A DNA stretch of 64,000 nucleotides from Prosthecobacter debontii. Lineage in GTDB: Bacteria > Verrucomicrobiota > Verrucomicrobiia > Verrucomicrobiales > Akkermansiaceae. Location: positions 1 through 64,000 of the forward strand of contig CAMCBV010000008.1 in the NCBI GenBank assembly GCA_945873125.1, read 5' to 3'. Shown here one piece after another: positions 22,223 through 25,990 of this stretch. The translations under genes were made by a program, and so were the position numbers. The notes below the pieces were generated by a model that was not told the origin of the DNA, ran no database searches, and worked only from the letters and a program-made list of their open reading frames with translations. How positions within the stretch are numbered: position 1 is the stretch's first letter; every line of letters starts with the position of its first letter.

Positions 22223-22657
22223 TCATTCCGGGTTGAGATCCTCCTCGGCACCGATTTGGAGCCTGTGGAGAATGGCCAATTCGTTTTTTGTGATAGGGTA
22301 GGGGCCGGAAAACTCAACCGCATGGGATGATGCCAAAGCACTGCGGCATGCAAAGGCTTCACGGCTTTCCGGGTAATAAAGGATCAAGTAACGGCTTCCG
22401 CTATTTGAGGTTTCCGCGTAATATCCGGGTTTCCCCACTTTTTTGATAAATTCTCCAAGGTCCGGATAATATCGGGACAGCGCGCGAAGTCTTTCGTAGC
22501 CGAAGGTAGGCGGGCTCTCTTCCACCAGCATGATGTGGTCATGAGCGGTGGCGTCCGTCTGATGAAGATAGCTCGAATTTTCCAGAGACTCGCATGAGCT
22601 TGTGGCAGCAACCATGAGGCAGCCGCAAGCGATGATTGAAAAATAGAGGCGCGACAT
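22223..22657 (-). CDS. Small lipoprotein, partner of trypsin-like gene (copy 1)
   Basis: About 144 residues with a lipobox near ATSSC (Cys 22 from the ATG at 22657). Its core GYERLRALSRYYPDLGEFIKK, PGYYAETSN, SRYLILYYPESREAFAC and GPYPITKNELAIL aligns with the lipoprotein at 23527-23937, so the two are paralogues. An alternative TTG start at 22672 overlaps the upstream protease stop (TTGA), suggesting coupled translation. No known family is recognised. It could be a partner, chaperone or inhibitor of the adjacent protease (inference). Confidence 0.65.
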   Translation of the reverse strand: MSRLYFSIIACGCLMVAATSSCESLENSSYLHQTDATAHDHIMLVEESPPTFGYERLRALSRYYPDLGEFIKKVGKPGYYAETSNSGSRYLILYYPESREAFACRSALASSHAVEFSGPYPITKNELAILHRLQIGAEEDLNPE

Positions 22658-22668
22658 GAAGTTTGCAA

Positions 22669-23436
22669 TCAATGGCTTTTCCGTGAACTCCTGTCTTTTC
22701 GAATGAGTTCCTCAATTCGGTGGGTATTTGGGCGAACTCCTTCTGAATCGATGAATATGGCCGTCTCCATGGGAATGAGAAATTCAACCGCAGAATTGAT
22801 TCCGATCAGGTTTCCATAAGCATCAATCACCGGCCCTCCGCTATCTCCAGGCTCAAGCGGTATATCCATTTTGAATGCACGATTACCCGTTAAGAACCCC
22901 TCTGGTGCCAGGGTGGTCTGCAATACGCCGGAAGTTGATCTGGATCCGGTTGACATTCCGCCATGGATTACGGGATGTCCCTTGAAAATTTTACGGTGCG
23001 AATCCGACCATTGATAATAATAGGGGGTTTTGATCGGAACATGCAGGATCGCAAGATCATCCGCGGAAGAACGCCATACGATCCTTGCCTGATGTGTGAC
23101 AACCCTACCGCCGTTGGCATAGATGACATAAACACTTTTATCACCTGCATCTGCGAGAACGTGATCTGCTGTTAGAAAATATCCATCCTCGCTGATCGGA
23201 GCGGCCGACCCTCCGTCGGCATCTTTGGGTGCACTAGCGATGGCAAACTCTCCATGCGACCACGCGCTGATGTCCTTGCTTTCAGTGACAACCACCGCAC
23301 ACAATCTTTCTTTGGCCATTTGTCTCGTGGTCTTATCTGGCATCTGGCCAGAAAGCTGATGAGGCCCTTGCACAGAACACGCCGCACTCGCGCCCAGCAA
23401 ACACAAGATACCGAAATTTCCCAACCAATCACCCAT
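22669..23436 (-). CDS. Trypsin-like serine protease lipoprotein (copy 1)
   Basis: 255 residues with a lipoprotein signal (GASAAC, Cys20). The S1-type protease domain has catalytic His92 (FLTADHV), Asp127 (DDLAILH) and Ser199 (EPGDSGGP), and the substrate-loop GINSAVEF near the C-terminus. It lacks PDZ domains, so it differs from DegP/HtrA. It is followed directly by a small lipoprotein gene. It is a paralogue of the 24031-24906 protease, sharing the DGGSAAPIS block, IYANG, ARIVWRS and KTPYxYQWS. Confidence 0.88.
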   Translation of the reverse strand: MGDWLGNFGILCLLGASAACSVQGPHQLSGQMPDKTTRQMAKERLCAVVVTESKDISAWSHGEFAIASAPKDADGGSAAPISEDGYFLTADHVLADAGDKSVYVIYANGGRVVTHQARIVWRSSADDLAILHVPIKTPYYYQWSDSHRKIFKGHPVIHGGMSTGSRSTSGVLQTTLAPEGFLTGNRAFKMDIPLEPGDSGGPVIDAYGNLIGINSAVEFLIPMETAIFIDSEGVRPNTHRIEELIRKDRSSRKSH

Positions 23437-23449
23437 CGCACATTATAAA

Positions 23450-23505
23450 AGCACAGGGTGACAAATCCGTCACATAAGTTTTTATCCGTATGATACTTAA
23501 GTGAT
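23450..23505 (-). promoter_or_regulatory. Conserved upstream element, copy R1
   Basis: This stretch before the copy 1 protease aligns with 23948-24003. Both read, on the plus strand, GTCACAT, two bases, G-x-TTTTA-x-CC, then ATG and CTTAAG. R1 holds the inverted repeat GTGAC(N6)GTCAC. It is probably duplicated regulatory DNA. Confidence 0.5.
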
Positions 23506-23526
23506 TGGCGCATGGACGCTCCCTGC

Positions 23527-23937
23527 TCAACGATGGCGTTGTTCGATCGTTTTCAAAATTTCAAACTCTCCGTCCTTGATTGGAAAGGGTCCGATCAAAT
23601 TGGCATGCTGCGGAAATGCTGTTTCACCTTTGCAAACGTAGGCTTTTCGCTCTTTCAGATAATACATGATGAGATACTGGCTGCTGTGGTGGGCGGTCTG
23701 GGCCACGAAACCGGGCAGTCCTCTGGTTTTTAGGAATAAATCGAGTTCGGGATATTTTCCCGACAAGGAGCAAATCATGCGGTAGCCCTGCGTGGATGAT
23801 TCTTGTTGAACCGGAAAAATACCCTCATCCATCCCGGAAAGGCGATGACTGGAGGCAGGGGCAAACCCGACGGAGCATGAGCACAACCCGAACAACATGG
23901 GGAAAATGAAAAAAATTGAAGACCGAAACAAAAACAT
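23527..23937 (-). CDS. Small lipoprotein, partner of trypsin-like gene (copy 2)
   Basis: About 136 residues. A hydrophobic signal ends at a Cys-rich lipobox (LFGLCSC). The body shares GYRMICSLSGKYPELDLFLKT, LPGFVAQT, SQYLIMYYLKERKAYVC and GPFPIKDGEFEIL with the copy 1 lipoprotein. An upstream in-frame ATG at 23955 overlaps the R2 element and seems less likely. It follows the copy 2 protease by 93 bases. Function is unknown. Confidence 0.62.
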   Translation of the reverse strand: MFLFRSSIFFIFPMLFGLCSCSVGFAPASSHRLSGMDEGIFPVQQESSTQGYRMICSLSGKYPELDLFLKTRGLPGFVAQTAHHSSQYLIMYYLKERKAYVCKGETAFPQHANLIGPFPIKDGEFEILKTIEQRHR

Positions 23938-23947
23938 GGGACAGTAG

Positions 23948-24003
23948 CAAAGCATAAGCCCATCCCCCAGTCACATGGGCTTTTACCCAGATGGGGCTTA
24001 AGG
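23948..24003 (-). promoter_or_regulatory. Conserved upstream element, copy R2
   Basis: Aligned with R1 at 23450-23505. It contains the perfect 8-bp inverted repeat AAGCCCAT(N11)ATGGGCTT. It precedes the copy 2 small lipoprotein, whereas R1 precedes the copy 1 protease. Confidence 0.5.
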
Positions 24004-24030
24004 GATCGTCCCATCTGCGTTCGAATTTCG

Positions 24031-24906
24031 TTAAAGCGACTCCCTGTCTCTGTCGATAATGGCTTGAATTCCGCTTATGCTGGGGCGAATCGCTTCCGAT
24101 TCGATAAATATTTCCGTCTGGAGAGAGGTAAGAAATTCAATTTTGGCATTGATGCCGACCAAATGACCGTCGACATCGACTATAGGCCCTCCGCTGTCTC
24201 CCGGCTGTAGCTTTATATCCATGTGGAAAGTGCCACTCTTCGCCATCAGTCCATCAGATTTGATCTTACTGATGACTTTGCCTTGGCCTAGGGTGGCTCC
24301 TGTTACAACTCCGCCCTGCATGACGGAATGACCCAGTATCATGGGAAAATCGAACTCGGACCATTGATAGGAATAGGGCGTTTTTGCAGGTATGTGTAAG
24401 ATCGCCACATCGTCCTTATCCGAACGCCATACGATCCTCGCTCGGCTCGTGATCGTTTTGCTGCCATTTGCATAGATGATGAAAACATGGTTCCCGCCAG
24501 CTCTCGCCAAAACGTGGTTTGCTGTGATGAAATAGCCGTCTTGGGAGATCGGAGCGGCAGAACCGCCATCCAAATTTCTATGGTCTCTGATGACTGAGGG
24601 ATTCACATTTGGAAAATTTTCTAGGTTACTTCGCTTTGTGACCGCCACCGCTGTCAACCTATCCTCGACGATCTGGCGAGTGTGCTCTCGCCATGCCGTG
24701 TGATTCAGCGGCGCTGCGCTTTGTATTGGGGCGCAGCATGGAATCCATGTCACGCATGACAACACGGCAACAAGGCTGATACCCTTGCCGGAAATCTTTC
24801 CCGAAACACAGGGCAAGACGGCCTTGACCAAGCGCCGCATGGGCGAATCGGAAACCGAACGCTCCCGCCGTTTTCCGCAAATCTCTCTGGCGATGGGTTT
24901 GGACAT
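24031..24906 (-). CDS. Trypsin-like serine protease lipoprotein (copy 2)
   Basis: About 291 residues from the ATG at 24906. A long basic leader precedes a hydrophobic stretch ending CVTWIPCC, a likely lipobox. The triad is His131 (FITANHV), Asp166 (DDVAILH) and Ser238 (QPGDSGGP). It is clearly paralogous to the copy 1 protease over about 190 residues. The start is uncertain: ATG at 24840 would give a more ordinary signal peptide, and the frame is open back into mutY. It lies downstream of mutY on the same strand. Confidence 0.85.
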   Translation of the reverse strand: MSKPIAREICGKRRERSVSDSPMRRLVKAVLPCVSGKISGKGISLVAVLSCVTWIPCCAPIQSAAPLNHTAWREHTRQIVEDRLTAVAVTKRSNLENFPNVNPSVIRDHRNLDGGSAAPISQDGYFITANHVLARAGGNHVFIIYANGSKTITSRARIVWRSDKDDVAILHIPAKTPYSYQWSEFDFPMILGHSVMQGGVVTGATLGQGKVISKIKSDGLMAKSGTFHMDIKLQPGDSGGPIVDVDGHLVGINAKIEFLTSLQTEIFIESEAIRPSISGIQAIIDRDRESL

Positions 24907-24952: not shown

Positions 24953-25990
24953 TCAATCCATGCCGACAAGGCGATCGAGCGATCTCCTAAAGGGAGCTGC
25001 CAGGGGCAGCTCATGCAATCGATCAGGATGAATCCACGCATCTCCATCGAGCATACGGACAGAATCTGCGTCCTCGATAAGATAGACGTTCAAGAACACG
25101 CGATAACGGGTGATCGTGTATTCAGATTGATAGGCCGGCTCGATTTTTGCAAAGTCTGAAGCAGAGCGCAGGGGTAATTTCCAAAGTCCGTTGCGACGTG
25201 TTCCCGATTCATGATGCAGCAAAATCCTCCCCGCTGAATCGCGGCAGAATATCGCGTATTCATGGAGATATGTGATCGCCACCGGGGGTTTTTTGATCGG
25301 TAGTTTCTCTGGCTCCGCGCATTCGCAGAACGATGCTAGGGGGCAAATCTCACAAGCAGGGCGACCCGGGCGACATATCGTCTGCCCCAACTCCATGATC
25401 GCCTGATGGTGAATTCTGGGACTCGTGGGATCACATAACTCAAGCGCCCATTGACGATGTCTACGGATCGCCGCATGTTCGTCAATGGGTGAAAAATCCG
25501 CCATGATGCGTGAGAAAACTCGAGAAACATTTCCATCGACTAAGCCGGATGGTTTCCCGAAAGCAAATGCCAACAGAGCTGCCGCCGTGTAATGACCCAC
25601 GCCGGGGAGATCCAGCAAAGCCGCCTCATCATCCGGGAAAACGCCATCGTGATTTGTCAGGATTGCCCTCGCTGTCTCTCTGAGCATGCGCGCCCTGCGG
25701 TAGTAGCCCAAACCTTCCCAGGCTTTCAGCAAACTTTGGTCATCCGCTTTTGCGAGACTCTCCAAATCAGGAAATTTTTCGAGAAACCTCATGTAATAAC
25801 CTTTTCCTAAAACCGTTGCGATCTGCGTCTGCTGCAACATCATTTCCGAAACGAGAATCGGGTAAGCCTCCCGAGTCCGGCGCCACGGATAATCTTTCCC
25901 AACCCTTGCGAACCAATCCCCCAGCGCTTTGCGAAATTGCGTTTTCGCAGCCAAGGGAGATGCTTTGAAACGCGGCTTTAGCCTGTCCAT
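24953..25990 (-). CDS. mutY: A/G-specific adenine glycosylase MutY
   Basis: 345 residues. MutY removes adenine opposite 8-oxoguanine. The N-terminal glycosylase domain has SEMMLQQTQ with Glu49, the helix-hairpin-helix LLDLPGVGHYTAAALLAFAFG, and the catalytic Asp in GLVDGNVSRVFSR. A [4Fe-4S] cluster is predicted from the four Cys in ICRPGRPACEICPLASFC. The C-terminal part is Nudix-like and reads RRNGLWKLPL. Its start overlaps the stop of the upstream fur-like gene by one base (TGATG), so the two are translationally coupled. Confidence 0.96.
   Translation of the reverse strand: MDRLKPRFKASPLAAKTQFRKALGDWFARVGKDYPWRRTREAYPILVSEMMLQQTQIATVLGKGYYMRFLEKFPDLESLAKADDQSLLKAWEGLGYYRRARMLRETARAILTNHDGVFPDDEAALLDLPGVGHYTAAALLAFAFGKPSGLVDGNVSRVFSRIMADFSPIDEHAAIRRHRQWALELCDPTSPRIHHQAIMELGQTICRPGRPACEICPLASFCECAEPEKLPIKKPPVAITYLHEYAIFCRDSAGRILLHHESGTRRNGLWKLPLRSASDFAKIEPAYQSEYTITRYRVFLNVYLIEDADSVRMLDGDAWIHPDRLHELPLAAPFRRSLDRLVGMD

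What the first reader, a model, noticed from the sequence alone, without database searches (positions are those of the whole stretch)
22223..24906. Duplicated protease plus small-lipoprotein array
Reading on the minus strand, the order is protease 2, lipoprotein 2, protease 1, lipoprotein 1. Both proteases have complete His-Asp-Ser triads and lipoprotein signals, and they share long identical blocks. The small lipoproteins share a distinct core (GY...LS..YP.L, PG..A.T, YLI.YY...R.A..C, GP.PI...E..IL). The protease 1 stop overlaps a possible TTG start of lipoprotein 1. A two-gene unit that has been copied in tandem, with coupled translation, suggests a functional pair such as protease plus cognate inhibitor, activator or substrate. 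I know of no described system of this form.
Basis: partly seen in the sequence, partly recalled or inferred. Interest (0 to 1): 0.68.

Follow-up and report, generated by a model that had tools for sequence, protein, structure and literature searches.

The report
Serine protease with dedicated lipoprotein partner
A lipid-anchored serine protease and a small lipoprotein of a previously unnamed family are encoded as an inseparable gene pair in about a hundred Verrucomicrobiales genomes (duplicated only in this one), so the small protein is probably the protease's private regulator, most likely an inhibitor or gate.

Summary
Two tandem copies of a protease plus small-lipoprotein unit lie on the minus strand (proteases 44% identical, lipoproteins 37%). 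In a 145-genome family sample the same 51 genomes hold both genes and 94 hold neither; in the genus, 67 of 73 hold both and 6 neither. In a second family, where the genes are sporadic, the same 7 of 68 genomes hold both. In all 99 loci read the protease lies upstream of the lipoprotein on the same strand; in two genomes the genes are unlinked but both kept. All 103 proteases keep His-Asp-Ser. The protease has the HtrA/DegS fold without a PDZ domain. The lipoprotein matches no Pfam or NCBIfam family at cut-off and no solved structure. A single-chain AlphaFold model of protease plus lipoprotein has pTM 0.80, which I read as confident docking, but no PAE, coordinates or decoy control were available. 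Tandem duplication is not the family's habit: 1 of 103 carrier genomes. The genetic form is not unprecedented (Bacteroides C10 proteases with lipoprotein inhibitors); both protein families here differ. Whether the partner inhibits, gates or activates is not shown. Verdict: new variant of a known kind.

The parts
24031..24840 (-). protease 2: PDZ-less HtrA-fold (S1C-like) serine protease, copy 2, next to mutY; fast-evolving but triad intact
23527..23955 (-). small lipoprotein 2 (partner of protease 2), lipobox LCSC
22669..23436 (-). protease 1: PDZ-less HtrA-fold serine lipoprotein, lipobox SAAC, conserved copy
22223..22657 (-). small lipoprotein 1 (partner of protease 1), lipobox TSSC; TTG at 22672 overlaps the protease 1 stop as TTGA, ATG at 22657
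23423..23513 (-). leader repeat, copy upstream of protease 1
   Evidence: pattern found only twice in the genome
23926..24014 (-). leader repeat, copy between protease 2 and lipoprotein 2 (duplication scar or second promoter/leader)
24953..25990 (-). mutY, conserved upstream neighbour (66 of 77 loci); context, probably not part of the mechanism

Best explanation
The unit encodes a two-protein envelope protease complex. The first gene makes a lipid-anchored serine protease with the HtrA/DegS catalytic fold but no PDZ domain. The second, translated right after it, makes a small lipoprotein that sits in the same compartment and docks on the protease domain as its dedicated regulatory subunit. The most likely sign of the regulation is restraint: inhibition or gating of the active site, perhaps doing in trans what the PDZ domain does in HtrA proteins. 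Shown by computation: the pairing, gene order, conserved triad, PDZ absence and catalytic-domain fold. Inferred: lipid anchoring (lipoboxes), docking (pTM of a single-chain model) and membrane side. Guessed: the inhibitory sign (about 0.45 on its own) and the stimulus. In this genome the unit was copied in tandem; copy 2 diverged fast in both partners together.
For: Co-occurrence: 51/51 of 145 family genomes and 67/67 of 73 genus genomes; in a second family the 7 of 68 genomes with the real protease (139-192 bits) are the 7 with lipoprotein matches of 55 bits or more. All 99 loci have the same strand and order, two with one extra lipoprotein gene between. Two genomes keep both genes unlinked. 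H-D-S invariant in 103/103. HtrA/DegS fold, Z about 20 over 168-196 residues. Single-chain AlphaFold2 model: pLDDT 87.9, pTM 0.80 for 384 residues with about 40 disordered linker residues; by my arithmetic a freely placed second domain would give about 0.6. A helix at the start of the lipoprotein (275-284) appears only with the protease present. Distances correlate beyond mutY (partial r 0.36). Both copy-2 proteins have the longest end branches (protease 1.74 vs 0.32; lipoprotein 3.5 vs 0.34).
Against: No experiment, coordinates or PAE were available, and no decoy pair was folded. The interface position is unknown. Column covariation between the partners is not above near-neighbour shuffles for the top pair. 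Nothing tested separates inhibitor from activator or substrate. Two second-family genomes hold a weak lipoprotein relative (30-34 bits) without the protease, so the fold may be older than the partnership.
Confidence: 0.6

Rival explanations
1. The lipoprotein is an activator, assembly chaperone or substrate adaptor of the protease, as PrcB is for dentilisin PrtP or LbcA for CtpA.
For: The protease is never found without the lipoprotein, as expected if it is inactive alone. Lipoprotein partners that activate or are needed for envelope proteases are known (PMC11021448, PMC8167434). The PDZ domain that recruits substrates in HtrA is missing. HtrA2 rows in the structural comparison align out to lipoprotein residues 334-351 of the model, over the start of the PDZ domain (weak).
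Against: Known adaptors such as LbcA carry helical repeats, while this is a 105-residue alpha+beta domain without Pfam hits. Protease-first, partner-second order with tight coupling is the order of known protease-inhibitor operons (PMC3462683).
Confidence: 0.28
2. The lipoprotein is the dedicated substrate: it is cleaved by the protease, for example to signal or to be released from the membrane.
For: Strict pairing and co-localisation would also fit; the lipoprotein evolves faster than the protease (mean distance 0.87 vs 0.61).
Against: The core fold is compact and conserved to the C-terminal helix, with no shared disordered cleavage segment seen apart from the post-lipobox linker. The model predicts stable docking that orders the N-terminal helix.
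Confidence: 0.1
3. The two genes are merely operon neighbours with separate envelope functions, and co-occurrence is vertical inheritance of a block with mutY.
For: mutY precedes the pair in 66 of 77 loci, presence is clustered on the tree, and many absences are shared by descent.
Against: The pair persists without an adjacent mutY in the eleven loci of genera g11 and g15, is sporadic in the second family yet always joint, and both genes persist when unlinked in G036 and G144.
Confidence: 0.12

Closest known systems
Bacteroides C10 protease / staphostatin-like inhibitor pairs (Btp/Bti, Bfp/Bfi; PMC3462683)
   Same: Exported or lipoprotein protease with a small exported or lipoprotein partner gene, e.g. 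4-5 bp downstream of the protease, co-transcribed, sometimes in duplicated clusters
   Different: C10 papain-like cysteine proteases with staphostatin-like inhibitors; here a serine protease of HtrA fold and a small alpha+beta protein with no detectable relation
DegS/HtrA serine proteases (S1C)
   Same: Catalytic-domain fold (Z about 20) and His-Asp-Ser triad
   Different: No PDZ domain, lipid anchor, about 20% identity; an adjacent partner gene nearly always present
RsgI9 S1C-NTF2 bi-domain of Clostridium thermocellum (PDB 7sjy)
   Same: PDZ-less S1C domain joined to a small alpha+beta domain; among Foldseek matches of the fused model
   Different: One polypeptide, a sensor whose S1C domain is reported to bind polysaccharide (PMC12203970); rmsd 20 over 366 columns, so mutual placement is not shown to be shared
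LbcA-CtpA and dentilisin PrcB-PrtP
   Same: A lipoprotein partner needed for or activating an envelope protease (PMC11021448, PMC8167434)
   Different: Other protease families; LbcA has TPR repeats, PrcB lies first in its operon
Staphopain/staphostatin and SpeB/Spi
   Same: Protease gene coupled to a small cognate inhibitor gene (described in PMC3462683)
   Different: Cytoplasmic inhibitors of secreted cysteine proteases; here the partner carries an export signal

Membership tests
HtrA/Deg serine proteases | trypsin-type domain with His-Asp-Ser | tested here: met
   103/103 keep the triad; Trypsin_2 in 78/78
HtrA/Deg serine proteases | HtrA-type catalytic fold | tested here: met
   model residues about 18-236 vs DegS, MucD, HtrA: Z 19-20, rmsd 2.2-3.8, 168-196 aligned
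HtrA/Deg serine proteases | one or more PDZ domains (most members) | tested here: not met
   no PDZ hit in any of 78 members; PDZ-less Deg5 exists in plants (PMC3473262)
HtrA/Deg serine proteases | trimeric assembly | not tested
   no multimer modelling
Staphostatin-like inhibitor operons (Btp/Bti type) | small exported partner gene directly downstream, same strand | tested here: met
   99/99 same strand and order, 97 of 99 with no gene between
Staphostatin-like inhibitor operons (Btp/Bti type) | papain-like cysteine protease | tested here: not met
   serine protease
Staphostatin-like inhibitor operons (Btp/Bti type) | staphostatin fold of the partner | tested here: inconclusive
   no Pfam hit; Foldseek/VIA found no convincing relative
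Staphostatin-like inhibitor operons (Btp/Bti type) | partner inhibits the protease | not testable with these tools
   needs an enzyme assay
Cystatin/monellin fold | helix wrapped by antiparallel sheet | tested here: inconclusive
   cystatins, stefins and monellin at Z 4.0-5.0, rmsd 3.5-4.7, within the noise the tool warns of
SmpA/BamE/BLIP-like lipoproteins | profile match | tested here: inconclusive
   only 3 of 79 members touch DUF3192 (best E 0.0054); relation of DUF3192 to BamE/BLIP is from memory; BLIP-like 3d4e at Foldseek E 1.0
LbcA-type TPR adaptors | TPR superhelix | tested here: not met
   no TPR hit; model is alpha+beta

The most novel reading that the evidence does not exclude
The small lipoprotein is a new family of dedicated, membrane-anchored regulators (inhibitor or gate) of an HtrA-fold protease, acting in trans in place of the lost PDZ domain.
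Probability: 0.35. Interest if true: 0.68.

Novelty: new variant of a known kind. Interest (0 to 1): 0.52.

Why it matters
HtrA-type proteases usually carry their control element (PDZ) on the same chain. Here a bacterial lineage appears to have split catalysis and control into two lipoproteins that never part. That offers a testable two-component model of protease control in the little-studied Verrucomicrobiota envelope, an unannotated protein family with a likely function, and in this genome a natural specificity experiment with two co-diverged pairs.

Tried and rejected
Gene fusion as Rosetta stone: G156 has both domains in one frame, but the protease C-terminus is frame-shifted there and the lipoprotein keeps its own signal peptide and lipobox, so I read it as a frameshift, not a fusion. 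Second tandem copy in G157: a contig-overlap variant. Known fold for the lipoprotein: Foldseek PDB and BFVD gave nothing with E <= 0.001; VIA top rows (ShyA 5.6, cystatin A2 5.0) are in the noise. Sequence relatives of the lipoprotein in the PDB: none. Mutual-information coupling: top pair within the shuffles, tenth-ranked value slightly above them; treated as no evidence. First related-loci scan with the two-row alignment found nothing. Promoter and terminator scan: at chance level. Literature: no paper on this pair in Verrucomicrobiota found.

Full report
What is there. On the minus strand of 22223-24840 lie, in order, protease 2, lipoprotein 2, protease 1 and lipoprotein 1, between mutY and a prepilin-like gene. 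The proteases are 44% identical and the small proteins 37% identical. Pfam sees Trypsin_2 and no PDZ in the proteases, and nothing in the small proteins. NCBIfam gives only sub-threshold HtrA-type hits.

Is the pair real elsewhere. Searching 145 genomes of the family with each two-row alignment gave the same 51 genomes for both. In the genus, 67 of 73 genomes have both and the same six lack both; several of those six are incomplete. Other serine proteases in the genus genomes score at most 64 bits against more than 230 for the family. In a second family of the same order only 7 of 68 genomes carry the real protease, and exactly those seven carry the lipoprotein at 55 bits or more, in the same gene neighbourhood. 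Outside these two families a sample of the phylum held neither. Named carriers include Luteolibacter marinus and Haloferula species, which NCBI places in Verrucomicrobiales. I read 99 loci with both genes: all have protease then lipoprotein on one strand, two of them with one extra lipoprotein gene between. In G036 and G144 the genes are in distant places, mutY-protease staying together, and both are kept. In 30 of 99 loci an NTGA start-stop overlap is available.

What the proteins are. All 103 aligned proteases keep His, Asp and Ser, and the lipobox Cys is nearly invariant. The catalytic domain superposes on DegS, MucD and HtrA at Z about 20. The lipoprotein core (consensus AA.D.IMLVR..PPTFG..RL...PDL..FL...G.PDFLAET...YLILYYL..R.AFACR...EFAGPYPIT..E...L) is predicted as strand, two helices, four strands, helix with pLDDT above 90 in most of the core. 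Its G.PDF and GP.PI motifs persist in the second family. No library gave a convincing relative.

Do they bind. In 23 loci the lipoprotein frame follows the protease stop in the same frame, so reading the stop as glycine gives a linked chain with naturally paired rows; this is a modelling device, not a claim of read-through. An alignment of 22 such rows plus unpaired rows gave a model of 384 residues with pLDDT 87.9 and pTM 0.80, both domains above 90 in most blocks and a linker below 50. With d0 of about 7 A, a protease domain of about 220 residues plus a freely placed 100-residue domain should give about 0.6; 0.80 needs an inter-domain error near 4 A. That is my inference, because PAE and coordinates are not returned and no decoy was run. 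The segment just after the lipid anchor forms a helix only in this model. HtrA2 rows of the structural comparison extend to residues 334-351 of the model, over the beginning of the HtrA2 PDZ domain, a weak hint that the lipoprotein sits near where the PDZ packs. Distances in lipoprotein and protease correlate beyond mutY (partial r 0.36 against 0.23 for lipoprotein-mutY). Column covariation is inconclusive.

The duplication. It is found only in the window's genome among the carriers. Copy 1 is the conserved one (end branches 0.32 and 0.34); copy 2, next to mutY, has the longest branches of both trees (1.74 and 3.5) yet an intact triad. A leader of about 90 nt upstream of protease 1 recurs between protease 2 and lipoprotein 2 and nowhere else in the genome. 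It is a duplication scar or a second leader.

Mechanism and rivals. The best reading is a lipid-anchored, PDZ-less HtrA-fold protease whose regulatory subunit is a separate, co-translated lipoprotein. I lean to inhibition or gating because protease-then-small-partner with tight coupling is the form of known protease-inhibitor operons, including Bacteroides Btp/Bti where the partner can be a lipoprotein (PMC3462683). Activator or chaperone (LbcA-CtpA, PrcB-PrtP) is the main rival; substrate and mere neighbourhood are less likely.

Novelty. No paper on this pair was found in the library searched. The kind, genetically coupled protease plus small exported partner, is known; the protein families and the pairing with an HtrA-fold enzyme are, to my knowledge, new.

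Noticed in passing
L189, L190, L192 (second-family genomes G584, G583, G580): The pair is followed by a PDZ-bearing trypsin-like protease and then by a PDZ protein with a partial trypsin domain, making a four-gene envelope protease cluster.
   Followed up: partly
L191 and L193 (G582, G601), between protease and lipoprotein: An additional predicted lipoprotein gene, overlapping both neighbouring frames; the copy scanned (from L191) has no Pfam match.
   Followed up: partly
L145 and L194 (G368, G572): Weak lipoprotein relatives (30-34 bits) without the protease, each beside another small lipoprotein gene.
   Followed up: partly
window 23423-23513 and 23926-24014, minus strand: A leader repeat of about 90 nt found only twice in the genome, before protease 1 and before lipoprotein 2.
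   Followed up: yes
window 24953-25990 and orthologous loci: mutY lies directly upstream of the pair in 66 of 77 loci; in ten other loci a Dus-like gene lies upstream instead.
   Followed up: partly
L054 (G156): Apparent protease-lipoprotein fusion, read as a frameshift near the protease C-terminus.
   Followed up: yes
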